A DNA stretch of 64,000 nt from Liolophura sinensis (lineage: Eukaryota > Mollusca > Polyplacophora > Chitonida > Chitonidae): positions 27,511,608 to 27,575,607 of the forward strand of contig NC_088300.1 in the NCBI RefSeq assembly GCF_032854445.1, given 5' to 3'. This document shows, piece after piece, positions 1 through 64,000 of this stretch. Position 1 is the stretch's first letter. Every line of letters begins with the position of its first letter. The notes under the pieces were generated by a model that did not search any database, had not been told where the DNA came from, and saw only the letters and a program-made list of their open reading frames with translations. A program made the position numbers and the translations under genes.

Positions 1-2262
1 CTTTGGCAAGTTAATGATTAAAATTCCCAACTGTTAGATACAGATATGACCACAATATTGGTGGAAAATAAGCGTTTTTTTCAATGAACGTTAGACTTTA
101 CCTATTGCCACATGAGTGCCCTCAACTGCGTATTAATTGTCATTCCCAAACTTCCAAACAAACAATCCCAACTCAAACTACTTAATTTAGTTAAAATAAA
201 TCTAAACAAGACATTCAGAGGATACTGACAACTTGCCTGATTGATCAGTTTGTCAAACCTGAATAATGTTCAAGTCACGTGATACAATGAAATATGGATC
301 TCAGCTTTAAGTCTAAAAAACACTAAAATGATTGACACTGTCATACATAGATATTATCCTCTAATCATATAGAACTACGATCTTACAATTAAATCAACAA
401 GAAAGACCAGCATTATTATACTGTCACAACCATTACTGTTGATTGCACAGTGGTGACTTCATATATTATGGAGTTGTAAATCATTGTGGTGGTAAAAGAC
501 GCTGTGGGGAGTCGTGCACAACTTTACAACAGAGGTCTTTGATATGCAAATCGCGAACAGGAAGTGCATTTGGCAATCCATGCACTATAGGAGGCAATTA
601 TAACAGTGAGAATAGCTGGGCAAAGTGTTAAGCTATAGAAGATAAAGGATTCCCTTGATGATGGGCTACTGGACACCGCCATTGTCACCATTTGATCACC
701 CTCTTACAATACCTCTCCTTACTTCGTAAGACAAGCTAAAACTAATGATGTATTCTTGATTTTTATGTCTGATACTCCACACTCTTTACTTGTCGAGAGC
801 TGACAATTCCAGATATTCCATCCCACTGCATGCGCTATCTGTATATTGTACATGTATATATTTTAACACTAAATCCAGAAAATACAAGAAAACTGATTTA
901 ATCCCTCAAACAGTTAAAAGATGACAACACTAGATCAAATGTATACCTGCATCAACAAAGTTGGTATCCCATAGGAAATTTAAAAGGCATAGATGTTCAT
1001 TTTTGTGATGTTTCACAACCTAGATATTGCAGTTTAAAATAAGCAAAATCACCTACGTGGAGCCCAATCGAAAGCACTGCCAGATTCATCCAATCAGGGT
1101 GAGACACGTGTTATTTCAAAAATTTGTATAACTTGAGGAAGGCCGTTTCCAGTTATGTCAATCAAACCCTGTTTTGCCTATCAACCATATGTGCAAGTGA
1201 TACAACACTGCGTTTCTGGGTGATCTGGCGAATCCCATGACCTCGTAAGAATTCCCTATAAGCAGTTGATTTATAGAGTAACAAAGCACGTCAGAAAAAA
1301 ATGTCTGATCCATTAGGATTAGGAATGTTTCCCACTTCCTTGCTCTACCCCTTGCTCTATATGTCAGTCATCCTACTGACAACATCGAGTAGCAACGAAC
1401 ATATGTGTTGTCAGTACCTAGTGAGTAGATGTCTTACACTTTTTTATACAGTACAATGGATTAGCCAAGAAGATTGATCAGCTTTCAAAAACCACAATAC
1501 ATCCATATTCCGATGCTTAAAAATACTCAAGGCGCATCATTACCCCATGGCAGATATTCCATATACTAAACGTTGCCTAAGAATGTTATCCACAAGTCAG
1601 GCTTCGGGTCCCACACCGTAACACCTACTGCAACAACAACACCAGTTCACGCCTCCTGACTCTCGAAAGACCAGTCTGACTTCCACACTTAACTCCTTTA
1701 ACTGTCGCCTTTCTCACTTTCAAAGGAAAGCAACGCCCTAAAAACACATCTGGCGAAATTACCATTTTCAACTATCCACTTAAATTCTGTTTTCCTACCT
1801 GTCTTCGACACTGTTCTGTGGACCTCTGCAGCTCGAGACCAAAATGGCAGAAGAGAAAATGGGTGGGGCCTATGTTGTCAATTTTGTAACAAGCAACGCC
1901 ATTGGTCCATAGCCAGTATTATTAACCGGCTACCACTTGACCCCACATTTAAACTCACAACTTTGATCGCGCTACTGCTATAGTGTTATAGCCACAAGAA
2001 CTGTTAATTAAGCGCAACCTTCCTCCAAGTGTATCCATTACGCCCCAGGCGTAATATACATCTAAATATGGCAACACCTCTGATGCCGACAGTTGTAGAT
2101 ATGATTATTCACCACCGGCATAACAGGTACGCATATGGTACCGGCACATTAATTACTTACAGTATGTCAAAACATTTTGACATTTTATTTTACAATTCAC
2201 AATTTACACATTTCTTCACCTCTTTATAACATATAAATTTAAAAAATAAATGACTGTAAGAT

Positions 2263-2268
<6 letters not shown>
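1..2268. other. No gene seen
   Basis: AT-rich sequence with a family C fragment at 1-20. Short open frames only, none with domain-like composition. Confidence 0.6.

Positions 2269-2293
<25 letters not shown>
2269..2293. repeat. (TA)n microsatellite
   Basis: About twelve TA dinucleotides in the gene A 3' flank. A shorter one lies near 2548-2562. Confidence 0.95.
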
Positions 2294-2369
2294 CCTACCA
2301 TATGAAAGTAAGTTATCAAGAAAGTGTATAACTCTGCATATGCCTTTGTAGTGGTGGTTATATATGAGC

Positions 2370-2730
2370 CTATATAGTTTGACCGAGATGCAGGTTCAGT
2401 CCCAGCTTTGGACAGGAAATTTAGAGATACCCGCGCTAATTGTTTTGGGGGCTTGGTGCATGACAATAGCAGGTTGACAGTGCTCGCCGTGGGCCATTTG
2501 GCGTGTAAGTCTATATATTACATAGGCCCTGATACATGTAGATATTCATATATATATATATATGCCTATACATTACCCGTGTGAAAAATCGTCAGTTACT
2601 TCATTGCCGAAGTTCATTGCACTGTTCACAACGGCTTCCTCCACACATAAAACTGACCGCAATCGTGGTAGTGAAAAATACGTGAGTATATGGCGTTATA
2701 AGCAACAATCATAAATAAAATAATTAAATT
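2370..2730 (+). mobile_element. SINE family C (related to family A), diverged
   Basis: B-box-like GCAGGTTCAGTCCCAGCTTT, CACACATAAAACTGACCGC, GTGAAAAATACGTGAGTATA, then an AT-rich tail. Contains a short TA run. Confidence 0.55.
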
Positions 2731-5009
2731 GTCACGCTAAACCAAATAAGCTTAAAAACACTAAAAGATTAAATAAATCAGTGGTGTTAAACAGTACAAG
2801 GGATTGTCCATATCGACCTGAATCCTGTCAATTAACAGATCTATTTTCTTCAAACAAATTCTTTGACATGTAGGTTTGTGTAGGGGGTCTACATGTTATA
2901 CGCATAATTAAAATAGCTCGTATCTGTGCCATATTATACAGTGAACCTAGATACTTCGTTCTGTAATTGATGTGACGCCAGAAAGTAATTAAATAAATAT
3001 GATAGGAGCTTTGATAATGTCTAGCTGATTCTTAAATATGTAGAGGTATCTTGAACACAAGAACGATAATCGTGACATAAAAATACGATTTATATTTAAC
3101 GAGTTGTCTCCCTTGATTAATATCGCGGTAAACCTGTAGGCTGATCGGCTGTTAACTGTTAACATAGTCCATCACTAAACAGCGTTAACAACCCACGCAC
3201 CACCCAGCAGTAATTGTTACCTGTTTTAAATCCCAAAACAATGAAAATCAAACTACTGCATGAAATTAGGCCTCCAAAAATCGGAACTAACCTTGATTCT
3301 ATTCAGTTTGATAAGCTTGTCACTGATTATATCAATAGATCATTTGAAATTATACCTACTGTCGAATATTTTTTGCAAATGGAATTTTCGATCAACCTTT
3401 CAACAGGAAAGTGGCTTAACCACTCACGGTGACAAGTGATTATATGATGTACTAGATTATCAGAATACAATATTAACACCACATGAGGCATATAATCACC
3501 AAGATCTTTCACATCTAAAAAATTTGCTGGAAATGGAATGTTATGAAAAGATAGCTTTATATATACCGTTCGGTTGATATATAGGCCTACCCAGATAAAT
3601 TCAAACGTAGCCCTGAAAAGCCGCAACCACAATATCTCATCCAACAATAAGACAGGTGAATATTGTCTAGACCTATCCGATCGGTTCCTGCAGGCACAAT
3701 ACGGTCGAATGCAAAAACCCAGGGGCATTAATAAGGGATTAGGGGTCTCGGATTGTCTATGTACTGACGAAAAGCGGTTGTTTACTCTGTGTTCTCTGAT
3801 TTCGTAAAAACATGCAACAAACTATGCTTATTTATAAATCCCCTATACTGGTACCCGCGAGGAAACGGACTACAGAGTACACCGCACCTTCCAGACCCAC
3901 ACAAAACAACTTTCCGAATTTTTGGCTTTCTTTATAAAATTATTGTCGCAGTTATTTGTCTTGCACTGTTTTGTCCCATTTCAACAAAACTGTGGCCATT
4001 TTGGTCTTATTTATGCTTTTTGGACATAATTCAAAGCGGTTCATGGTATTGAATTGAAATTTAATTGGTTGTTTATGGACTACGAATGGTATAGGAATGT
4101 CGGACTTGACGCTTATATTCACCATATAACAAGTTGCAGATCCCGTTCCTGCTTGGCATTGTATTTATCCACTTCAGTCCAGTCTAAGCCTATTTGCTTT
4201 ATGTGATTTGCACACATATGTTATATATTACATGTAAAACTACACCATGAGCTGACAGTGCATGTTGTTTCAACACAGCTATAATTACGTATTATATTAA
4301 TACGACATCTAATGCAAAAGATCTATACATTAGACTGAAGAAACTTGCATGACGCTTTATTAATATTATAAATACCGTCCGCATACCTCGATATATGTTT
4401 ACAAATATAGTGACTTCTTTTTCCGACGAAATTCAAGGTCAGAGGTATAGTTATTTTTTGTAAAACTGGCCCATGCACAGGTCTTCATGTGTACACATTA
4501 TGTTTATGAACTTCATTCTATATAACTTTAATTCTCATTTTTGTCAGGATTCAAGTTATATTGAGCGATTTGTGTGTATATTTCCTTCGGAATACTGCTG
4601 TCACAATACTCATAACTTCAGAAATAGCACGTATAAATGCTTCCAGAGTCGAAAGGCAGCTACCGGACTTTCTGATCACAAAAAAAAATTTGATTGCGCA
4701 ATACAGCAAAACAAAATTGGCATTCATGCCCGAAGTGCACCTCGGACGGTTTGGTTAGCGAAAAACGCGTATATATGAAGTACACAAACAATGGTTTTTG
4801 AAAGTATTTTACATATGAACTAAATAAGTTTTTGACTGGAATGTACGTTATATAGTTAGATGATCTTATATACATGACGCTGAACCCATCCATGCTAAGT
4901 AGTGATAGAATAACATTAATCTATGCGTTTGCTTAAAGTTGCCTTCATCACCATTGCAAGATAATGTCTTGGAACGTCGCTTTTAACATCAACGAACCGT
5001 GGTAGGAGT
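2731..5009. other. No gene seen
   Basis: No splice-bounded coding stretch recognised on either strand. The longest open frame (3327-3728, minus) has no domain signal. Confidence 0.55.
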
Positions 5010-5296
5010 TGTTTGTATTCCAATGGCCGGCATACTGGTTGCAGGTTCAAATCCAGCCTTGGACCGGGAATATGTAGATTTCAGCGATCCACCTGTTTGT
5101 GGTGCCATGATTATATAAGCGTGGTTGACGTTCGTTGAAGCCACTTATCCTTACCAATATGATGTGTATGTATATCTGTTCGTCACATGTTGAGATATTC
5201 GCCCGTGACTTGCCAAAGGTCGGTGCGTGGTTTACGCCAGGTACTGGTTTCCTCCACCAATAAAATTGAGAAAAAACCAAGTAAACAAATAAATTT
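5010..5296 (+). mobile_element. SINE family C copy
   Basis: GCAGGTTCAAATCCAGCC, later GACTTGCCAAAGGTCGGT and TTTCCTCCACCAATAAAATT. The body matches copies at 21752 and 35195. Confidence 0.6.
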
Positions 5297-5892
5297 TAAC
5301 ATCATTTCACGATGATATCAATGGGTTTAAAATGTCTTTCAACGTCATTATACACGATGATGATGTCTTGAGGCTTGGCCGTTGCTCTGAAAGTCATTTC
5401 ACGATGACGTCTTGGGATATAACGTGACTTTTCCATAATTTCACAATGTATGATATCGCCTTGTATAACAATTAGTTGGTTTCCAATGTTAACACAGTTA
5501 CAGCACTGTTTCAATGGAGCGCCAGTCGCCAAACACCTCACACAAAGTCATGATGTAAATTAACACCGGGTACACCAGTTTTGGTATATCTCGTTTTGCT
5601 GGGGAAGTACGAAGTTTACATACAATCTTCTATGTAGAGACCTTTTCACAGAACTGTTGGAGGTTACATGTTGCATAGTACTGTAATAAGCACCATGCTT
5701 TTTCATGACGCCGAGGATACAGCATATGGTGTTGTAATAAGTATATGTCTTTTCATGCCATCGTGGAAAAAATCGTTATTTTAAAGTGGTTATCCAGTAT
5801 AGCAATTAACACATTTACGTTGTTTTAAGGCCAGTACTAAAGATTTTCATTCACACGACGGCGGTACATTTTCTGGAGGAAGACGGAGTATC

Positions 5893-6000
5893 CGGGGTTA
5901 AACCACCAACCTTTGGCAAGTTATACTGATGAACTTTCTCCGCCATGTGACGTACAGATGTGCATACCATATTGGTGAAAACAAGTGGTGTTTAAAGGCC
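5893..6000 (-). mobile_element. SINE family C fragment
   Basis: CCACCAACCTTTGGCAAGTT, then GATGAACTTTCTCCGCCATG. The same start is seen at 26935 and as a short piece at 1-20 of the window. Confidence 0.5.
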
Positions 6001-6044
6001 GTTAGAGTGAACTGCAACACAGCCGCTTATTGTCATTATGAACA

Positions 6045-6225
6045 GCTCATGCTGGTTTCCTCTCCGGCTCTACATTGCAAGGTCTGCAAGCTACCTGCGG
6101 ATGGTCATGGGTTTCTTCCAGGCTCTGCCCGGTTTCCTCCCACCATAATGCTGGCCGCCGTCGTATAAGTGAAATATTCTTAAAACACCAATCAAATACA
6201 CCAATCCGTTAGATAAATAATCATC
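6045..6225 (+). mobile_element. SINE family A, 3' part
   Basis: TGCTGGTTTCCTCTCCGGC, CCTGCGGATGGTCATGGG, CACCATAATGCTGGCCGCCG and an AAATA-type tail. Confidence 0.75.
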
Positions 6226-6229
6226 ATGA

Positions 6230-7230
6230 ACAGTGAGAGATGAAAGAATCTACAAACTCCCTGTCCAAGGCAGGTTTTGAACCTTCACCTTGTACGTCCT
6301 GCCTACTGAAAGGCCCACACTTTTCACCTCTAGACCATGGTCCGCTTCCAGTTTTCTGTGAGAGTAAGGTTATATTTACAAGGTCTATAAACTGTAACGC
6401 TTAGTCTTCGAAAGAACACCAATAATTTAACTGGCTTCTAGAATTCTAGAGATCGCGGTTTTGGACTTGGTTTATATTTTGTTTGTCAAGTACGATAACT
6501 TCTGACTCTCTTTCTGAATGTATAGGTGAAATAACGATCATTGCTACAAGCAATTCTTAATTGACATATGACAGTTGTAGCCGGATCACAGTGTCCATGC
6601 CGGATTCATATGAGGAGGACCATATGCAGTGATTCTTTCCGTTTATGCAATGGAGTATACTCAGCTTCAATGGCATAATCAACTTAAATCTTTATTTTAT
6701 GACAAAATAAATCGTTGCTCAAATATACAATGACAATAAATTTGACAAAGTCTATGCAGAGATGACGAAAGCACTCAAGAGCATTAACCAGATATAAACA
6801 CATAATGTCATACAGACATAAAAAGATCGAAATGATATTATGCCATTACAATTAAGTTGCTTAGTAAAATTTACATGTGCATATATAGTAAATCTGTGAC
6901 GTGTATATACCAAAAATCATTCATGTGCATGACATCAACTTGTACATGAATATAAAAACTAAAGTATAGTTTGAGGTAAAATGGTAAAATAAAATTTTCG
7001 GGAAATAACATCGTATTATAGTAAAACATAGACTTGTAAGCATGATTTGAAGGTACCAGCGTGCACCTGTTTATATACATATGCCTGTTTGTATTTCTTG
7101 ACGTGCATATGGGTACCCTAACATACTCATGATAAGCTGTGGATGTCTTCCAGCATGGTATAAATTGGGACACGGTTCCATAACAACGGATTCACATAGG
7201 TTATATATGCCAAATCTGAGGCCAATCCGT
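6230..7230. other. No gene seen
   Basis: AT-rich and non-repetitive; nothing recognised. Confidence 0.55.
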
Positions 7231-7234
7231 CGAG

Positions 7235-7445
7235 TTTTTCTTATTCATTTATTTAATTCATTAGGCCTAGTGTTTTACACTGTTCTGAACAATATTTCAT
7301 TTATACGACGACGGCCAACATGGCTGTAGGAGGTAACTGGGCTGTGCCCGAGGGAAGCCCCACGACCATCCACAAGCTGCTCGAAGACCTAACCCGTATA
7401 ATCGAGAGGAAAACCAGCTTCAGATGTTCTGTGCTAGCACGCCAA
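7235..7445 (-). mobile_element. SINE family A, diverged
   Basis: Reverse copy: CATTTATTTAATTCATTAGG, ACGACGACGGCCAACATGG, CCACGACCATCCACAAGC and AGAGGAAAACCAGCTTCAG. Confidence 0.65.
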
Positions 7446-8340
7446 TCACTCGACCGAGGAGGTAGCTGTTTTTAACTATGATATCATGCAGAAAGGAAAA
7501 TTTCAAGGAATGCACAAACAGATGAGGGGAGTCCAGTTTAAACTGAGTTAAACACACAGACGGGCAGATCTAGACGGATGGAAGAATCTGAACAAAAGGT
7601 TCCCGACAAAGGATTTCTATACCAAATCAGGGATCTAGCTGACAAATTTCTTGAACAAAGACATCATGCAAAACGACAATTTGAACAAATCCACAGATGG
7701 TAAGACAGACGAGCGAACCTAATCAAAAAGCAATTCAAAGAATGGCGTCAATGCAAGGGATTCTTATTATGCATGCATCAAACCTAAGATCGACCTATCA
7801 AATCTGAACAAAAAAAAATGTCGCACACGTAAGTTGGTACGGACAAGGTAACGGAAGTATAACAAATAAATAAAAAACTATAAAATTATATTCGGTAGTT
7901 TACTATCTTATAAAATGCCAATAAGTGCTTTCAGTATACGAAGCCCTTCATATATCACTGACATTTTAATTTGCTGCCGGGTACTTATAGTTGAGCGAAC
8001 ATGTATATATGCTCTTCAGTATCACAAAGGGTTGACACACAGAATAATATCTCACTCCTCGATGTGTTTATCCAGAATAAAAAAGAACTTTAAAAAAGGG
8101 CACAGCTCATTTCACACGGTTGATATAAATGGGAAGGGTCATATACCTAAGCGTAGAGGCTGCCTCACAAGCGCCTCCCTAGATTTCCGCCTGACAGGAT
8201 GAACTGGTCTCGTGTTGACACAGGTCACGTGGCTGGAACACGAGATGTTAGCATGAGTTCCTGTATTGTAATTGGTACGACCCGTTAAGCTCAAAAATGT
8301 CAGTGTATGACACTGATATACTATATAAACATAATCAGAA
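7446..8340. other. Gene A 3' flank, no gene seen
   Basis: Lies past the candidate poly(A) signal of gene A. Repeats of GAACAAA- and TCTGAACAAAA-like words near 7590-7810, no coding sequence. Confidence 0.5.
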
Positions 8341-8346
8341 TTTATT
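8341..8346 (-). terminator. Candidate poly(A) signal of gene A
   Basis: AATAAA on the minus strand, about 500 bases past the gene A stop codon. It is the only canonical hexamer I noticed close downstream, and nothing else confirms its use. Confidence 0.35.
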
Positions 8347-8555
8347 TCAATTCCTCACGTAATACACACTTGACATGCTATTCTTGAGCCGGGAAACTAG
8401 CCTCTACTCTACTACGTGTTCCTACAGGAAAACCGGAGTCATCGCTCAACATCTCCTGCCTACACAACCCGGTTCCAAGCTTTGCCAAACCCTGGACACT
8501 ATTCTCTGCTGTTACACTGCAATGCTTTTGAACTACCCTTTTGTTTTACAAGCAT

Positions 8556-8675
8556 AACTATACAGAAACAATGACGTATTGAGTAACTAACTATATAGAA
8601 ACCGCGACGTATTGAGCAACTATACAGAAACAGTGACGTAATGAGCAACTATATAGAAACAGTGACGTATTGAGC
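8556..8675. repeat. Four-copy 29-bp tandem repeat with TGACGTA cores, in the gene A 3' flank
   Basis: Copies start at 8556, 8589, 8618 and 8647; the last three are in exact 29-bp register. Each reads AACTATA(C/T)AGAAAC followed by a GACGTA core and ATTGAG. Three of the four contain TGACGTA, a CRE-like half-site. Confidence 0.8.
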
Positions 8676-8843
8676 AACTATTAAAGGAAAGGACAAAAGA
8701 GTACAACACTTGAGCCGACTTGACCCCTATTAACACTTCCACTGAACGTTTTCAGTATATGGTGTTATGTAGCATACCAATTCGCTAATGTGGACAGAGG
8801 TATGCAGTAATGGAATACAAGAATAGCTTGGAGTGAAGACTCT

Positions 8844-8983
8844 TCACACATCATCGTGGTAATTAAGGTACTCTGAGCCCTCGTTCTCGTAGATATTGTT
8901 GGCGGTCACTGCCTTCCCGTCCTGGTTGGACATCCATCGTCTTTCTTTGGTTCTTGTGTTGTACTCGTACATCTTCCCAGAGG
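8844..8983 (-). CDS. Gene A exon 28: cytoplasmic C-terminus and stop
   Basis: Encodes ASGKMYEYNTRTKERRWMSN, then NNIYENEGSEYLNYHDDV and a TGA stop at 8846-8844. Y-E-N-E fits the Grb2-type SH2 site (pYxN), and the terminal D-D-V fits a class III PDZ ligand. Both are consensus matches only. Confidence 0.88.
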
Positions 8984-11900
8984 CTTAAGTAAAGGATACA
9001 ATGTCATAATAAAATTCAAATTATATTAAACCTAGATGAATGTGCAACAACTGCAACGTACAGATGTTTATCACTCACAAGTCCTTCCCAGTTCTCAGAT
9101 TACGGTTAAATTGAATGAAGAATTGGTCAAATTCCCAACAAAGCCTGGAATGAGATTATAACCTTTTGCCACAAAGGCAAAGCTGAACTATGCCGCCGGA
9201 GAGGGAGGCGAACACGCGACCTTTGAGGTCTTGTGGAACTACCCATTATACCACTTGGCCAGCAGTGAGCGTTAAGTAATGTTAAATGTGAAGCATTTCA
9301 TTGGTGGATATTTATAACATGTATACTTGCCTGGATCAATGGCCATCCCATCAAAATCCCGCGCCAGTAATGAGGTACCATACACCGGTTTGTCACGTCT
9401 TAAGACGTCGCTATTATAATTCATGGCCTTGATCTATGGAAAAGATAGTCAAATATCATTTGAATTTCTCCCACTAAAAATTTTAAAGAGATCACAGTAT
9501 CGTAACTGTCAACTGTAAATGGCAAAATATGAATCTAGTTCAGTATCATGGACTCTTGATACCTCCGCTGTTCTATAACAACATGACAATTTGGTGAACC
9601 GTCTGGACTGAACAAGAGTGGTTATATCTTTCACCCAGACAAAGGCATTATGCCGTCTAATGGAAACAAAAAGCAGATCTACATGGATCTATCTACATTT
9701 AACCTACCCTGTCTGGTACGGGCAAAGAAAGAACTGCTGGCCTTATTCCTTTCTTGAGATCATCATTCCCAACCATGGACATTGGATGAATGTGTTTTGG
9801 CAATACTTCCTTTTCACTCCTCACTTCCTCTGTACAAGGGAAAAATACTTGAGTACTGTTACGAGATTAATGTACTTATATATCCCAATAGAGACCCGGT
9901 TTCCTACAGCTCCAATCATATATAAAACTTACTACCATGGTATAAGTGAAAAGTTGTTGAGTACGGCTTTAAACAACAATCCTTCAGTTCATTCATTTGA
10001 TGCTCGAGTAAATCTAAATTGTTGACTAGGTCATTGCCATATTGAAAAGTTTGCGAATACAAATCAATAACTACGCACAATGAGAAAGATAGAATATAAT
10101 AGTCAAACGGATCTAATAATACTGATGCTACTTTCTGTTAACTATATACTCGAAGGTCGAAAATGAATTCGGTATTGTTGAATTGATCTCTGCTGACTCC
10201 ATGTTCTGAGAAATCAGTTGTCATACCCATTGCTTCATCCGCTCCTCTGGTCATAGGCTTTACGGGAGTAATTGGTCTGTGGAAATAGAATATTAGATCT
10301 TTATATTAAGGTTCGACTGAGCCTACTCATACAAACGCAGATATGTATATCATGTGTTTATCGGTTATTTAACCTTTTTATGAAATGAACACTATGCTGT
10401 AGTCTTATACATTTTATTCATGCATAAAATGGGATTATTCTGTTGGTGATCAAGCATACCCCAGGCCTGATCCCATTGCATTATTTTGATGTGTTTGTAT
10501 ATTAAACAACACATTAAAGTATACAAATACAGCGTCACTAAATCAGTAACGTCTAATACATTGCAATTAACATCACTCCATATATTTTTATTTAATTCTG
10601 CATAGGTCTTAGTGCTGGGGGAGTGGTGGAGGCGGGGGGGGGTGCAGTTACTGCTATCTTCGGATTTACATGAACAGTAAGGATAAAACTGTAACTGAGG
10701 TAACTTGACAAGAGGCCGTATTTCACCCGGTTACGTGTGAGCATTTGCCAACTATCACACTGTTGTCGCTGCTCTGGCTTGGTTCCCTATGCTGTAGTCG
10801 CCTTTTATATAACATGCCCCTCTTCATCATTTGGTTAACTGTTCTACAATCAAGCCTACCTTTTTCTTCTTTTCGAACAGCAATAGTAGATTATACAAGC
10901 TGTCAGTAGTAGGAGCAGAAGAAAACCAACAACAGAGCAGACGATAACAGCTATTCCGGTTGTGGTCTGTACCCAAGGGGTCTCCTCGGCGTCATATGAG
11001 GTGACCTGTTCTATACCGTAAGCCGACCAACCCGCACCTGAATGGTAGCGAATAGCAAAACTGCATGGTGACTCAGTTTTTATTTTATATTTGATATATG
11101 AATATTTGTTCCGGAGAATTAAAAAGAATGACGTCTCGGTAAATGGGACAATTACTACCTAAATATCATATGTAATTCACTTTGTACACACCTAAATCAT
11201 AGTCCATTGTTTTCTCAAATTTGAGAGTTTTATTTATTTATTTTTAAATAAGATGCATGTATCATAATAATGAAAAGACCAGCACCAAAAGTAATATTTT
11301 ATGACCTTTAAATGTACTTTCTTGAGCCAATTCCAGGTCAAATACATTGTATGTTTTTATTTACCTGTTTATACTGGTATATTTGGAAACTTAAACAGTA
11401 GACAGAACTACGTAAACACTATTTGGTTATATAGAGCACACACCTGTTATCGCTGAGGATGGGGACCCGGAGCTATCGGAGACGAGACTAAGTGCATTCG
11501 TACTACTCAAAATGCTTTTGGTGACATCCACATTGTCCACGGAATTTGTGCTGTTGTCAGATAGGACATACGTATGTACCGTCACAGGTTTGTCTCTGGA
11601 ATATAAAGATACACGATATGCTCTTAATGTATCAGACTCTAAGGAAAGGGAATAATTCACTTTGTTATTCACTGGTTTTGTCTTTCTGGGTACTACGAAG
11701 TGAGAATGACTTGATCTAAATCTTGGATCGTAACACGTTTTCTTCTCAAGCTTTACAGAAGTTGTAAATCTGCAGGGCATCCAGAGAAGTCAGATTTCTC
11801 TGGAATTTGTCAAACATCTGGGAATTTTTACCCAGCTGAGAATATTTTGAATACAGTGATCTTACTTGGATAATTTGATGAATTCCTGACATAAATATTA

Positions 11901-29900: not shown

Positions 29901-32900
29901 AAAAAGTCTGAAAATCAGCTGTAGGCATTTCCCCATACGTGGTTAGCGCGCTAGCGCAGCGTAATGACCCAGGAGTCTCTCACCAATGCGGTCGCTGTGA
30001 GTTCAAGTCCAGTTCATGCTGGCTTCCTCTCCGGTCGTACTTGGGAAGGTCTTAAGCAGCCTGCGGATGGTCGTGGGTTTCCCCCGGGCTGTGCCCGGTT
30101 TCCACCCACCATAATGCTGGCCGCCGTCGTATAAGTGAAATATTCTTGAGTACGGCGTAAAACACCAATCAAATAAATAAATAAATCAAAATTTCACCAT
30201 GCATAAACAGCTTTACCCATATTCTAATCTATCCACACCGTCTCATATACCCACCATCAACAATGGAGTCTATGGAGTAGGTCAGAGTTCCATCAGACCC
30301 GTCGTCAGCGTCTGTGGCGGAGATCGTCACGATAGGCGAGCCTACAGTGACGTCCTCCTGGACAGTGTACGGCTTACCGGAGACGTAAACTGGAGAGAAG
30401 GTGTCCCACGCCGGGCTGGCATCATTCTCCGATGATACCTGATCGGATGAAGGAAATCATAGTTTGTGAGTATGTCTTAAATATGATCTGCCAGTTTGAA
30501 TATACAAATACTAGTACATCAGTTAACATCTTAATGTGAGGACATCCCAATGTAAATTTTTGGTGGCATTCTTTATCTGTTGGGCAATACTATGTCTGTT
30601 GCTTGTGTGTGAAATTACGCAGAAAGTTATCCAGGAATTTGAATGAAGTTTTGTGCACAGGATGGCCTTGGGCTAGGGGCAAATCCCCTTAATCGACTTC
30701 CTGATTTAAAATACATTTTATAAATGTATTCGTGATCAATGACACAAATAAAAAATACAGTCCCTTTGTATGTAGTACGGGAATTTGTACATTTAGCTGT
30801 GGCGGAGAATAAGCTCTCAGGGTGCACTTTGGGTTTTACCTGTATTATTACTGTTGCAGTTCCGATCTTAGGGACCGTCCCTCCGTCAGTACCAGTTATG
30901 ATAATTTCGTACTGGTAGTTCTGAGCAGACAAAGCTTCGTAGTCTATGGGGTTACCCGTTGTTTGCAGGTCATATCCTGATAAGGTGAACTTGGGTGTGA
31001 CATCATCACCAGAGGCAATGGCATAGGTAATGTCTCCGTTACCAGGAGAGAGGTCAGGGTCTGTACAAGTCACTGTCACAAGACTCACACCTAGGAACAA
31101 CATGACAGCATGTGGGTTGAAATGATCGCACATCTTAGAACATATTACAATGGAAAGGTGATACATGGTACTTGGTTGAAGAATTTGGTTTGTGGTTCAC
31201 AACCAGCATTTGATCTCGGAACCCCATATTCAAAGACTAGCTTTCTATCTACTTTTTATAATAGCCAAAGGGAAATTCCCACCTGTTAATGCCAGTGTAA
31301 GCACTTGAAAATTGTCCCCGTTATACATTCTACGATGACTATCGAAAGGAAGAAATTTCTCCATAAAAAGAATGTAGTTAGGTGAAGTTTACTTAATTGG
31401 AAACAGCAGTGTTTTTGCGTACCGACAGAAACACGGTCTGAATTACAAGGCGGAACTCACGCATGATACAAATAAATAGATGACAAGTGACGGCTGTCTT
31501 TGAATAGGATAAATATATACATCATGGCATCACCACATACCCGATGCCGTGTTTTCCAACACTGTTACGTAGTAGACACTAGGTGAAAACGTGGGCGTGT
31601 TATCATTGATGTCATCAAGTGTAACGACCAAGCTGGCTGCAGCTGAATTCCCTGCAGAGTCTGTCACGGCCAGAGTTAACTGATTGAAAACAAGTCTTGC
31701 TCCAGCTTCATCTCTGTCCAACTTGGTCTTCAAGCTAACGGTCCCCGAGGATGAGTCTATCTGGAAGTAACTTGTGTCACTACCTGTTAGAAAAGAAGTA
31801 GCGATCAGAAGGTGAACTGTGATAAGGTAACAAGGCCACGCCCTTTACTTATATGGTGTACCAAAAACAGTTAAAACACTCAAATGTATAGATGCACACT
31901 TTTTGATTTAGAAAAGGAAAAACACATATAAATTACAGCTCAGATGGTGATGATTGTGCCAGTGTTAAACATCACTGGGTTTGCACACGGATAACAACTT
32001 CTGATTTACTTGTGTGCAGCGTTTCGATTCGCATCGCCGTGAACCAAGTGACGACATAACCTCGCTAAAACTTTTTCTCTCATCAATTCTTGTTGATATA
32101 CTTTTGTTGTTTAAGTTATTTATGTACTTGAATGGGGTTTTACGCCGTACTCAAGAATATTTCACTTATACGACGGTGGCCAGCATTATGGTGCAGGAAA
32201 CCGGAAAGTCCGGGGCAAACCCACGACCAATGCCGACAGAATTTCCCACGTTGACCGGAGAGGGAGCCAGCATGAGCTGGGCTTAAACTTACAGCGACCT
32301 CACTGTTGGCTCCTGGAATATTGCTCACCGCTGGCACGCTAACCACCCCGGCCATGGAGGCCCCTTGTTTTCCTTACAATGGATATGGATTGGCATTTTA
32401 GTATTTAGTATTTCTATTTATTTCATTGGTGTTTTACCCCGTACTCGAGAATATTTCACTTATACGATGACGGCCAGCATTATGGTGGGGGGGGGGGGGG
32501 AACCGGTCAAAGCCCGGAGGAAACACACGACCATCCGCAGGTTGCTGCCAGATCTTCCCACGTGCGGCCTTATAGGAAGCCAGCATGAGTAATGGGGATA
32601 TGTTGCACAATTAATCCCTAACTGAACAATGCTGTACTATCTTGCCTGACAAGGAATTTGTTATACAATCTTATCGGACAGGGCATATGCTGTACAGTTT
32701 TACCAGACAAGACGTATGTTGCACAATTTTAGCGGTCAGGACATATGTTTTACAATTTTACCGAACAGGGCATATGCTGCAATCTTACCGGACAGGACAT
32801 ATGCTGTACAATCTTACCGGACAGGACATATGCTGTGCAATTTTACCGGACAGGACATATGCTGTGCAATTTTACCGGACAGGACATACGCTATACAATT

Positions 32901-35900
32901 TTACCGGAAAGGACAAATGCTGTGCAATATTTACCAGACAGTGCATATGCTGTACAATTTTACATGACAAACAATACGCTGTGAAATTTTACCGGACAGG
33001 ACATATTGTGTAAAAACTTACCTTACAGGGCATATATGTCGTACAGTCCTAGGTGGCAGACATGCTGTACAATATTACCAGGCAGGGGATGTTGCATACA
33101 AACTTACCTTACAGGGCATAAATGTTGTACAATCCTACTTGAAAGGACATATGCTGTGCAATCTTACCGGACAGGGCATACGTACACAAACTAACCTTAC
33201 AGGGCATATGTGTTGTACAATCCTACCTAAAAGGACACATGCAGTACAATTTTACCGGATAGTACATATGCTGTACAATTTACCGAACGTTGCATATGCT
33301 GTGCAATTTTACCAGACAGGACATATGTTGTACAATTTTACCGAACGTTGCATATGCTGTGCAATTTTACTGGACAGGACATATGTTGTACAATTTTACC
33401 GAATCTTGCATATGCTATGCATTTGTATCAGACAGGGCATATGCTGTGCAATTTCACCGGAATGGGCATATGCTGTGCAATTTTACCGGACTGGGCATAT
33501 GCTGTGCAATTTTACCGGACAGTGCGTTGCATATGCTGTGCAATTTCACCGGACTGGGCATATGCTGTGCAATTTCACCGGACCGGGCATATGCTGTGCA
33601 ATTTTACCGGGCAGTTCATTGCATATGCTGTGCAATTTCACCGGACTGGGCATATGCTGTGCAATTTTACCGGGCAGTGCATATGTTCTGCAACCTGACA
33701 GCTAAAATGATCTGACAGGTCATATGTTTTACAGCATTGTACAATCCTACCTGACACGACATATGTTGTAAGAAAGCCTACCTAACCGGACATATATGCT
33801 GTATAATCTTACCTGACAGGGCATATGTCAAAACATCACCGGCGTCCGCATCGGAGACATTGAACAATCCAGAGACTGGTGTTCCAACAGCCTGCTCTTC
33901 GTCAATAGTCACGCTCAGTGTACCGCTTATCACAGGATTTTCGTCATTCACATCTTGTACATTAACAGTCAATGAGCTGGTCCCTGTTACCGCTGCTGTA
34001 TCCGCACATCTAAGACAGGAAACATATATGTGTTGATTGCTATCTTTTTATCGTTTAATACCTGTAGAGTGAAACTATATACACCAGAACTCGTGCTCTT
34101 TCATTTCCATTTTGATTTATACCTTGTTTTTTTCTTCTTCAAAAGCTTGGATTCTATGGTGGGCTTTATTGTGATCGACTGATAAAGTGACACAGATTTT
34201 CTACTCTTACTTTCCCATTTTGAAGATATAACTGGGAAGGATACTAGTGCAACGTGTCCAAATGAGCTCTTACACGTTAAATACCAGGTTTGTGGTGAAA
34301 AATAAAAATACCTCTTAATAAAAAAGAAACACTAAACAATCAATCGAAGGTTGTAATATAATACTGCCAGTACCCTAACACCATGTAGCTATACATACAT
34401 TTGGCTGGTGGGTGTAGGCCTACTCACTCTATGACAAGAACAAACTGTGTCGTGGTTTCATAATCTAGAGCCACTGTGGTCTTTACATCCAGGCTGTTGA
34501 AGTCAAACCGCCTTGTGGCATTGTCTGGATCTTGTTGGACTATAGAACACGTATAAGGTACCGTTCCGCCGGATGGCGCCACTGTGTACACAACAGATCC
34601 CACGCCTATGTTCTCCGCTTTACTTGTACTGTCTGGTAGAGATGTGAATGTAACCTGGGCATCGGCTACAAAAGATGATGGCACAAATTATAGAACCAGT
34701 GTAGATGTGGCGAATATATGCCCGTTTCAGTAACGGTGTGACAGAAATGGCTCCATCCTCGCCTTGACGTTTCAGCAAGATGTGTGGAAACGTTCAGGCT
34801 TGTTCAGATTCAAGTTTGATAAAAATCAACCAAGGCATAGGTAGCATTTGTGAGCTGAGTATAGTTTATATGTCATGTGTGTCGAATTTTAGTGATTTTT
34901 GTAGTTTTTTAAGCCCTGCTATTTTACAAATGGACCTGACTAAAGAGCAACGACGCCGTGCAATTCCCCAAAATGATTCCAAGGACAGAAGCTGAATAAA
35001 CGTTGACAACAATGTGTAGAATGAAGACAATTTCATGTCGGATTAAATGTTTTTTTAAATTTTATGGGCTATATTCCTTTTATTTTTAAGATTTTTAATG
35101 GTTCAGACACCGGTGAAATGCGAAACATGACCATTTTCAAGACGGGATTTCTACTTGGCAAAAGTATCATGATGATCGTGGTAGATCACTTGCCTTCCAC
35201 CAATATGACACAGGTCTATGCCACACGATGAATGGCTTGCCACCTTAACTTGCCAAAGGTTGGTGGTTTAACAGGGGAAATTTGGTTTCCTTCGCCTACA
35301 ATATCCGGTGTTGACCTTAGTATAAGTTAACAATTCTTGAGTATGACGTTAAAGAACAATAAAAAAAATAATAAATAAATTAACAAAAAAAATGATGTGT
35401 CTCCAGGACTATGCTGACAATCACTGTATCATGTTTATAGAAATGCCAGAATTATACACCACTACTGTTATAAACAAACACTTGCGTTTATTATATAACC
35501 AATACACGTGTTTTCACGTCATATTTGTTCTTATTTCATAGACTATTTCGCGCTTTGATTAAAACTTTTTCCACGCAAATAACGGCGGTTAAGTTTATGA
35601 GTAAAGGAAACCGAATGCTCGGAGTAAACCACAGACATTCGTCAGATACCTAACAAGCATTTATACTTAAAGCCACAACCGAAACAACGGGGCCTCCCTG
35701 GCCGGGGGGGGGGGGTTTAGCACGCCAGTCTCTCCAGCGGCACGTGGGAAGGTCTGACAGAAACCTGCGGATGGTCGTGGCTTTCCCCTGGGCTCTGTCC
35801 GATTTCCTTCCACCATAATGCTGGCCGCCGTCTTACATAAGTGAAATTTATGAGTACGGCGTAAAACACCAATCAAATAAATAAATAAATAAACAACCAA

Positions 35901-63062: not shown

Positions 63063-64000
63063 TACCGGGCAAAAGAAACGTATAACTTTTAAATGCAGTT
63101 TTTTCTATGGAAAAATAAGTTGAATAAGTTTAAACGTTGTGTGAATACGTTTGTACATAAGCACCCTGTGTACACGTCACTTTTTAACGAGATTCATTGA
63201 AATTGGTGTAAGACATCATGAAAAATCGGAAAAACAGAGTTTCGGGCCCTGTTGAAAATTCTCGATAATGACCGCCGTATAAATACCAATGTAGCACATG
63301 GTAAGGGTGCAATACCATAAAAAAACATCTAAGAGATGCCGAGACTCACACAAGCAGAATGTGATAGAGCCACTGGTATGGCCGACATGGGGGCCATCCA
63401 ACACCACATTGCCAGAACATTCAATTGCAGTCAAGCCACCATCAGCAGACTGTTGGGTCGTTAGCGCCTAACAGGCAGGACACAAGATCGGGCAGGCCAA
63501 GTGTTACAACGCCTGGCAAAGACCGGTACATCCGCACAATCCACCTGCGTAACCGGTTTGTGACGGCGACGTCAACGGCGGAAACGGCACTGGGACACCC
63601 CATCAGCAGACACACAGTCTTACGACGACTCCGCGTGAGTGGTATGAGAGCCTATCGCCCCTTCCGTGGAATGGCATCGACTCCTCTATACCGTCAAAAC
63701 AGGCTGCGTTGGGCAAGAGTTCTACGTCGATGGCAGCAACGAGACTGGGAAAGGGTGCTGTTCACTGATGAAAGCCGATATAACCTCTTCAGAAATGACG
63801 GTTGAATTCGTGTGTATCGACGCAGGCAAGGGCAAATGGCACAAAACTGCATTCAGAATGTCCACCCTTTTGGTGCTGGTGGGGTGCTTGTATGGGGCGG
63901 AATTTGTGGACAGGTGAGAACGAGATTGGTCATCATCCAGGGAAATCCGCCTGGCCAAAGATACCAAGATGAAATATTGGAACCTGTTGTGGTGCCATTC
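63063..64000 (+). pseudogene. Decayed Tc1/mariner-like transposase, cut by the window end
   Basis: From ATG 63336 the frame encodes a helix-turn-helix start (AIQHHIARTFNCSQATISRL), then stops at TAG 63462-63464. A frameshift near 63480-63495 moves the reading into the frame of SGRPSVTTPGKDRYI, then LRVSGMRAYRPF and FTDESRYNLF, where D is the first catalytic Asp. A further in-frame TGA lies at 63803-63805, after which VLVWGGICG and GNPPGQRYQDEIL continue. A TA followed by CCGGGCAAAAG at 63063 may be the left end. The later catalytic residues fall beyond 64000. Inactive as read. Sits in the gene B intron upstream of the A11-equivalent exon. Confidence 0.85.

What the first reader, a model, noticed from the sequence alone, without database searches (positions are those of the whole stretch)
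32640..33827. Minisatellite grown from a real 5' splice site: about 40 donor look-alikes in one intron
The 29-bp unit is, on the transcribed strand, the last 15 bases of gene A exon 3 plus the first 14 of intron 3. The genuine junction at 33799-33827 is the array's first unit. At least three distal copies (near 32772, 32812 and 33162) keep the full GGTAAGATTG donor core; others are GTAAAA or GTGAAA. If spliced, the real site must be chosen from many near-copies, and using a distal one would add repeat-coded peptide. This is a way of making a tandem splice-site array that I do not know from other genes.
Basis: partly seen in the sequence, partly recalled or inferred. Interest (0 to 1): 0.85.

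Follow-up and report, generated by a model that had tools for sequence, protein, structure and literature searches.

The report
Minisatellite grown from a splice site
In a chiton's large cadherin gene the end of an exon with its splice signal has been copied about forty times into the next intron; such arrays are already known from lancelets and a human gene, but here several other conserved genes of the same genome carry them too.

Summary
On the minus strand 42 units of 29 bp (33827..32594) run from the last 15 bases of exon 3; unit 1 is the authentic junction CAG|GTAAGA at 33812. 35 of 42 units have GT at the donor place. Two paralogs share the intron but lack the array, so the junction came first. 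Distal donors cannot add repeat-coded peptide in this gene: 33 of 34 lie behind an in-frame stop, the last is frame-shifted into one. The kind is known: 'mirages' (tandem exon-intron boundary minisatellites) in amphioxus, and the human IFI6 array. What I did not find in print is the scale in this mollusc (assembly figures match the Liolophura chiton). Of 24 other donor-motif arrays examined, 6 clearly and 1 weakly start at a homology-supported exon end (annexin, RRP7, POLR3A, GH31, SMAD, diacylglycerol kinase; aldolase weakly), 4 rest on open frames only, 1 is doubtful, 12 show none. Donors seed arrays at about the background rate, so neutral growth suffices.

The parts
33813..34009 (-). Exon 3 of gene A (large cadherin), ends CATATGCCCTGTCAG
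   Evidence: open frame, acceptor TCTTAG, donor CAG|GTAAGA, Cadherin match of exon 3+4
33799..33827 (-). Unit 1 of the array = authentic 5' splice junction (15 exon + 14 intron bases; donor GT at 33812)
   Evidence: wrap-around alignment
32594..33827 (-). 29-bp minisatellite, 42 units plus a partial one, consensus CATATGCCCTGTCCG|GTAAAATTGTACAG
   Evidence: found at one place of the genome
31784..33812 (-). Intron 3 (2029 nt) that holds the array
33778..33780 (-). In-frame TAG met when the real donor is read through
33095..33124 (-). Unit 25, strong distal donor AAG|GTAAGT (GT at 33107)
33008..33036 (-). Unit 28, strong distal donor AAG|GTAAGT (GT at 33021)
33154..33182 (-). Unit 23, donor CCG|GTAAGA (GT at 33167)
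32804..32832 (-). Unit 35, donor CCG|GTAAGA (GT at 32817)
32777..32803 (-). Unit 36, donor CCG|GTAAGA (GT at 32788)
32632..32660 (-). Unit 41 near the distal edge, keeps the exon-like CAG before the junction and AAGA after it, but reads GC in place of GT
31541..31783 (-). Exon 4, continues the cadherin domain in phase 1

Best explanation
The array is a boundary minisatellite (a 'mirage'). A 29-bp stretch across the exon 3/intron 3 junction of gene A was duplicated in tandem, most likely after gene A split from its paralogs, and then grew by unequal exchange or slippage into the intron. The first unit stays in place as the working donor. The other units are intronic near-copies, which I infer are mostly ignored. 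If one were used the product would be truncated, and presumably removed by nonsense-mediated decay (inferred). No special function is needed: tandem arrays are common in this genome, and those that start at a donor are tolerated because unit 1 keeps the gene working.
For: Unbroken register from exon into array, 1398 against at most 36 in 100 shuffles. Unit 1 matches the consensus of units 2-42 at 26 of 29 bases. Paralogs B and C share intron position and phase without the array, and B has the same donor CAG|GTAAGA. At -2/+5 the exon's state A/G occurs in 8 of 41 copies, among them units 3 and 41 near the edges; 4 are C/G, 19 are C/A, 10 are other, as expected if the exon type is ancestral and the C/A type spread later. 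Of 34 distal donors 33 lie behind an in-frame stop and the last is frame-shifted into one. Other genes of this genome show the same anatomy. The share of 9-mer loci that are tandem is similar for donor and control word: 5 of 48 against 4 of 58.
Against: No RNA, second haplotype or related species could be examined, so splicing and age are inferred. The time order rests on two paralogs; loss of an older array in B and C is not excluded. 9 of 300 shuffles score as high as B's best unit-like stretch and 72 of 300 as high as C's; both stretches (18.5 and 14.2) lie below the maximum of 104 background blocks, 21.4. In 10 of 12 arrays GT is kept better than other dinucleotides (p 0.08) and in 8 of 12 the donor columns better than the others (p 0.23), which could hint at use, but 11 of the 12 were picked by their donor motif. 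A block inside the array (units 21-30) is also exon-like and divergent, so the history is not simply edge against interior.
Confidence: 0.82

Rival explanations
1. The distal donors are a regulatory device: use of any of them gives a truncated reading frame, so the array tunes gene A output through unproductive splicing.
For: 34 distal GT units. Against 24 hand-annotated donors of genes A, B and C (the real site among them) 10 of 34 exceed the 25th percentile by a human matrix written from memory and 19 of 34 by a matrix made from the local donors; two AAG|GTAAGT sites score above the real site by the recalled matrix. Distal use ends in a stop.
Against: By U1 pairing energy and by the local matrix 0 of 34 reach the real donor. 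Only 13 of 41 copies keep A at -2 and 12 of 40 keep G at +5. Paralogs do without it. Donor columns are not better kept than other columns in gene A (0.789 against 0.833).
Confidence: 0.1
2. One reading: distal donors add repeat-coded peptide to the gene A protein.
For: Several units keep good donors.
Against: In-frame stop 32 nt beyond the real donor; 0 of 34 distal donors gives an open extension into exon 4.
Confidence: 0.02
3. Reverse order: a pre-existing satellite lay in the intron and its sequence replaced the end of exon 3.
For: Unit 1 could in principle be a gene-converted copy.
Against: The exon end aligns without gaps to B and C and encodes a similar peptide end (TYALSG, SYSLSG, VHSLTG). 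No copy of the unit was found outside this array (the search scores only its best candidates).
Confidence: 0.05
4. 5' splice sites are true mutational hot spots for tandem duplication in this genome (for example through R-loops or stalled complexes on nascent RNA).
For: Triple AGGTAAG hits 2061 against 967 for the reversed word; triple CAGGTAAGT 238 against 85.
Against: Single CAGGTAAGT occurrences are themselves 9807 against 4854. By locus in the first 100 printed occurrences on C1, 5 of 48 against 4 of 58 are tandem, Fisher p 0.73. Acceptor-like words show a similar ratio, 1133 against 586. Numbers are small, so a modest hot spot is not excluded.
Confidence: 0.12

Closest known systems
Mirages: minisatellites spanning exon-intron boundaries in amphioxus (Adh3, globins, troponin C, PGBD5); PMC3087553 abstract and passages, PMC3902484 passage; the Adh3 original (Canestro 2002) is not held
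   Same: Tandem units that span an exon/intron boundary next to the authentic one; many keep AG/GT signals; both 5' and 3' boundaries are reported.
   Different: A mollusc; 42 units here and 88 CAG|GTAAGT sites in one other gene, against 6 and 3 units in the two haplotypes of BflGb6; many genes of one genome. RT-PCR in amphioxus pointed to regular splicing; not tested here.
Human IFI6 (6-16, G1P3) minisatellite with multiple splice donors (Turri 1995, not held; passages in PMC4526556; reference title only in PMC2572611)
   Same: A minisatellite that provides repeated splice donors downstream of the exon.
   Different: In IFI6 two downstream repeat units are used as donors and encode isoforms. 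In gene A the unit is 29 bp and distal use ends in a stop. The GH31 gene (L033, 39-bp unit) is the closer parallel.
Dual-specific splice sites in tandem repeats, UBC and VCX3A (PMC10809524, passages)
   Same: Splice motifs multiplied by a tandem repeat; a route to new introns is proposed.
   Different: There AGGT sites act as donor or acceptor, and in UBC they bound coding repeats; here the repeats are intronic and no acceptor use is shown.
Intronic VNTR affecting ABCA7 splicing (PMC5954066, search listing and abstract start only)
   Same: Intronic tandem repeat that bears on splicing.
   Different: From the listing alone I cannot say whether its unit contains a splice junction; not compared further.

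Membership tests
Mirage (boundary minisatellite) | Tandem units that span an exon-intron boundary | tested here: met
   Unit 1 = 15 exon + 14 intron bases, 42 units in register
Mirage (boundary minisatellite) | Authentic boundary is the edge copy of a protein-coding gene | tested here: met
   Frame exon 3 to exon 4 intact, same intron in paralogs B and C; no transcript seen
Mirage (boundary minisatellite) | Many units keep splice signals | tested here: met
   35 of 42 units have GT at the donor place, the real one included
Mirage (boundary minisatellite) | Homogenised interior, edge units left out of homogenisation | tested here: inconclusive
   Units 2-5 and 42 share 15-21 of 29 bases with the consensus; of units 6-41, 26 of 36 share 24-28, but ten share 17-23, most of them in a block at units 21-30. 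No formal test made
Mirage (boundary minisatellite) | Regular splicing is not disturbed | not testable with these tools
   No RNA data
Mirage (boundary minisatellite) | Length differs between haplotypes or cells | not testable with these tools
   One assembly only
IFI6-type multiple-donor minisatellite | Distal donors extend the exon without a stop | tested here: not met
   Gene A: 0 of 34. Met in another gene, L033: seven in-frame donors at +39 to +273
IFI6-type multiple-donor minisatellite | Distal units are used in transcripts | not testable with these tools
   No RNA data
Dispersed satellite or transposon-borne array | Copies elsewhere in the genome | tested here: not met
   Both matches and all 21 places (unit pattern, up to 3 mismatches) lie in this array; the tool warns that a missing match does not show absence

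The most novel reading that the evidence does not exclude
In this chiton, boundary minisatellites are a genome-wide class, probably a hundred or more introns, that gives ordinary conserved genes rows of up to dozens of near-identical 5' splice sites, so that only position can tell the right one. In a few genes with in-frame units, such as the GH31 glucosidase at C1:26353473, distal donors are really used and make a ladder of 13-residue insertions whose length varies between individuals.
Probability: 0.2. Interest if true: 0.75.

Novelty: new member of a known kind. Interest (0 to 1): 0.5.

Why it matters
How the spliceosome picks one donor among many equal ones is usually studied with built minigenes (recalled). 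This genome offers natural series: an array behind a SMAD MH2 exon with 11 distal donors identical to the real one, an RRP7 array with 52, a diacylglycerol kinase array with 88 CAG|GTAAGT sites over 4 kb. If the first site always wins, that is strong evidence for choice by position; if not, the genes pay with stops or, in GH31, gain peptide repeats. It also carries the mirage kind from lancelets to a mollusc and bears on models of intron gain by tandem duplication.

Tried and rejected
Relic array in the paralogs: unit-like stretches in the introns of B and C are within chance (9 of 300 and 72 of 300 shuffles as high; background blocks reach 21.4).

Selective weakening of decoys: the step from CAG|GTAAG to CCG|GTAAAA is seen in gene A, but my hand-worked chance that two of three fixed changes fall in the nine donor bases is about 0.2, and other arrays keep full-strength donors (those were picked by motif), so I do not claim selection.

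Hot spot at donors: not shown.

Frame length as proof of exons: stop-free runs at the 5' edge of 22 donor arrays (L017 and L031 left out, no flank) do not separate from the same edges read antisense (p 0.18) or from 34 runs at 17 control edges (p 0.28; 3 of 20 control edges left out because the array filled the piece). So L025, L027, L035 and L038, which rest on open frames alone and found no homolog (L027 not scanned), are not counted as shown. The controls were 10 arrays with the reversed word out of the list. Pfam on the 20 longest of the 34 control runs gave one clear coding match (P4Ha_N beside C1:6639059), two weak ones (E 0.025 and 0.047) and 17 none. So a control array can lie beside an exon too; there the exon end is not clearly part of the unit.

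Acceptor-seeded arrays: of 13 three-prime flanks fetched, one (L049) has an exon start of tetraspanin type, Pfam E 0.003, below that family's cut-off; in at least L042, L044, L045 and L053 the stretch read is still repeat, so the edge was not seen.

U1 landing pad against early polyadenylation: considered only; one AATAAA in the intron, no test made.
Full report
WHAT IS THERE. On the minus strand of the window a 29-bp unit is repeated from 33827 down to 32594, 42 units and a partial one. The score of the tandem alignment is 1398; 100 dinucleotide shuffles reach at most 36. The first unit is CATATGCCCTGTCAG|GTAAGATTATACAG: the last 15 bases of an exon and the first 14 of the intron. With the array consensus as unit the alignment reaches 15 bases further into the exon as a weak extra piece. 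Exon 3 (34009..33813), intron 3 (33812..31784, 2029 nt) and exon 4 (31783..31541) join in phase 1 and encode an unbroken cadherin stretch. The consensus of units 2-42 is CATATGCCCTGTCCGGTAAAATTGTACAG.

THE HOST. The window is C6:27511608-27575607 of a 609-Mb assembly with 632 contigs. Contig C1 is 96,433,062 bases. These figures equal those printed for the Liolophura chiton assembly (632 scaffolds, longest 96,433,062; PMC11068029, passages), named L. japonica at first and corrected to L. sinensis (PMC12441733, whole text). Totals differ slightly (609,464,459 against 609,495,693). So the host is, by these figures, a chiton, a mollusc. Gene A has at least two paralogs at higher coordinates of the same chromosome (which lists 119 cadherin-like matches in the genome); three of its long open frames match Cadherin with E between 2e-74 and 9e-118.

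WHICH CAME FIRST. Paralog B has the same intron, phase and donor (CAG|GTAAGA, 1165 nt), paralog C the same intron with CAG|GTCTGA (408 nt); neither has an array. Their exon ends align to gene A's without gaps. A search for a relic was negative: B's best stretch is matched by 9 of 300 shuffles, C's by 72 of 300. Both matches to the whole array and all 21 places of the unit pattern with up to three mismatches lie in this array; the tool scores only its best candidates, so rare distant copies could be missed. Hence the junction is most likely older than the array.

THE DONORS. 35 of 42 units have GT at the donor place, 34 of them distal. Measured against 24 donors that I annotated by hand in genes A, B and C (the real site among them), 10 of 34 exceed the 25th percentile on a human matrix written from memory, 19 of 34 on a matrix from the local donors. 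Two (AAG|GTAAGT, 33107 and 33021) exceed the real site by the recalled matrix, none by the local matrix, none by pairing energy to U1. Reading past the real donor meets TAG after 32 nt: 33 of 34 distal donors lie behind it and the remaining one is frame-shifted and meets a stop at the start of exon 4. So distal use truncates; it cannot lengthen the protein by repeats.

NOT ALONE. A genome search for three AGGTAAG words spaced 8-38 bases gave 2061 hits against 967 for the reversed word; three CAGGTAAGT spaced 6-36 gave 238 against 85. Hits overlap within arrays, so they are not counts of arrays, and only about the first hundred are printed. I fetched all 16 arrays in the printed part of the first list and 8 of the 9 new ones in the second; I left out C2:176925, which looked like a copy of C2:109440 (with 54 for flanks). 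In 6 of 24 the upstream flank is clearly a coding exon whose donor is the donor of the first unit: L018 annexin (PDB E 2e-20), L020 RRP7 (8e-11), L032 POLR3A (3e-9), L033 GH31 (Pfam 3.5e-13), L039 SMAD MH2 (5e-11) and L040 diacylglycerol kinase (1.3e-9). L034 is weak: deoxyribose-phosphate aldolase at E 0.0027, far below the family cut-off, nothing in Pfam or PDB. The share of exon bases in the unit varies, from 5 in L039 to more than 30 in L040.

Beyond the array the protein continues in L018 (3.3e-6), L032 (4e-9), L033 (7.8e-21; all), L039 (SMAD2, 1e-19), weakly in L034 (0.01) and by eye in L020 (Pfam found nothing there); it was not looked for in L040. Four more (L025, L027, L035, L038) rest on open frames alone: searches found no homolog, and a control shows that open frames prove little. 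L024 is doubtful: its array starts 160 nt past the donor and the peptide found no family. Twelve show no exon; in two of these, L017 and L031, no usable flank was seen. Ten control arrays with the reversed word were looked at too: one lies beside a coding exon (P4Ha_N, E 8e-8), without the exon end being clearly part of its unit.

STRENGTH IN THE OTHER GENES. Many of those arrays keep full-strength copies: 11 distal donors identical to the real one in L039, 52 in L020, 88 CAG|GTAAGT sites including the first over 3976 nt in L040; all were found by such motifs, so this is no measure of conservation. In L018, L020, L032, L034, L035, L039 and L040 reading through meets a stop within 23 nt. The exception is L033: unit 39 bp, seven in-frame distal donors before the first stop at +275, five of them CAG|GTAAGT, stronger by the recalled matrix than the real CAG|GTATGT, encoding a 13-residue repeat.

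HOW IT ARISES. Triple hits are 238 to 9807 single occurrences for CAGGTAAGT and 85 to 4854 for the reversed control. By locus in the first 100 printed occurrences on C1, 5 of 48 and 4 of 58 are tandem. Donors thus seed arrays at about the rate of another word in a genome rich in tandem arrays; the numbers are small. From 16 arrays in about 100 printed hits of 2061 I guess, roughly, a few hundred AGGTAAG arrays, a quarter to a half of them at donors; this is an extrapolation, not a count.

WHAT IS KNOWN. Amphioxus papers describe the same anatomy as mirages, at both 5' and 3' boundaries, with length instability and, by RT-PCR, signs of regular splicing (PMC3087553, abstract and passages; PMC3902484, passage). 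Human IFI6 uses two downstream repeat units as donors (PMC4526556, passage). I found no paper on such arrays in molluscs, but only two searches named molluscs or chitons with minisatellites, their lists were cut at 15 of 134 and 10 of 47 papers, one listed paper on cone-snail introns (PMC3862624) was not read, and the library lacks most subscription papers. The verdict is a new member of a known kind, with a scale in this genome that I have not seen reported.

Noticed in passing
L033 (C1:26351500-26355200) 2877 and 3080: The GH31 gene with the in-frame array is followed by two near-identical copies of the next exon about 200 nt apart, each behind its own acceptor: a candidate for mutually exclusive or duplicated exons.
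   Followed up: partly
L049 (C1:65033260-65034000): A likely acceptor-side boundary array: the unit carries TTTTCAG|GACT and the array ends at an exon start of tetraspanin type (Pfam E 0.003, below cut-off).
   Followed up: partly
window 32615-33715, + strand: Four stop-free frames of 132-245 aa run over the array on the plus strand; they follow from a unit without plus-strand stops and a length not divisible by three, and are most likely no genes.
   Followed up: partly
window 32130-32560: Two near-copies of a dispersed repeat (GAATATTTCACTTATACGA) lie just beyond the distal end of the array, one with a run of G; the motif also lies beside the array in L026.
   Followed up: no
window 63368-63805, + strand: Open frame that looks like a Tc1/mariner-type transposase (recalled resemblance, no search made).
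   Followed up: no
window 8556-8681: A second 29-bp minisatellite of 4.2 copies with an unrelated unit.
   Followed up: no
C6:27586403-27586384 (intron of paralog B): A stretch resembling an array unit; within chance by shuffles (9 of 300 as high) and background blocks.
   Followed up: yes
C1:535112-537903, 1291132-1292266, 1413360-1415600: Further CAGGTAAGT arrays with longer periods (about 47, 85 and 82 bp by the spacing of hits), not in the triple-pattern list; flanks not fetched.
   Followed up: no
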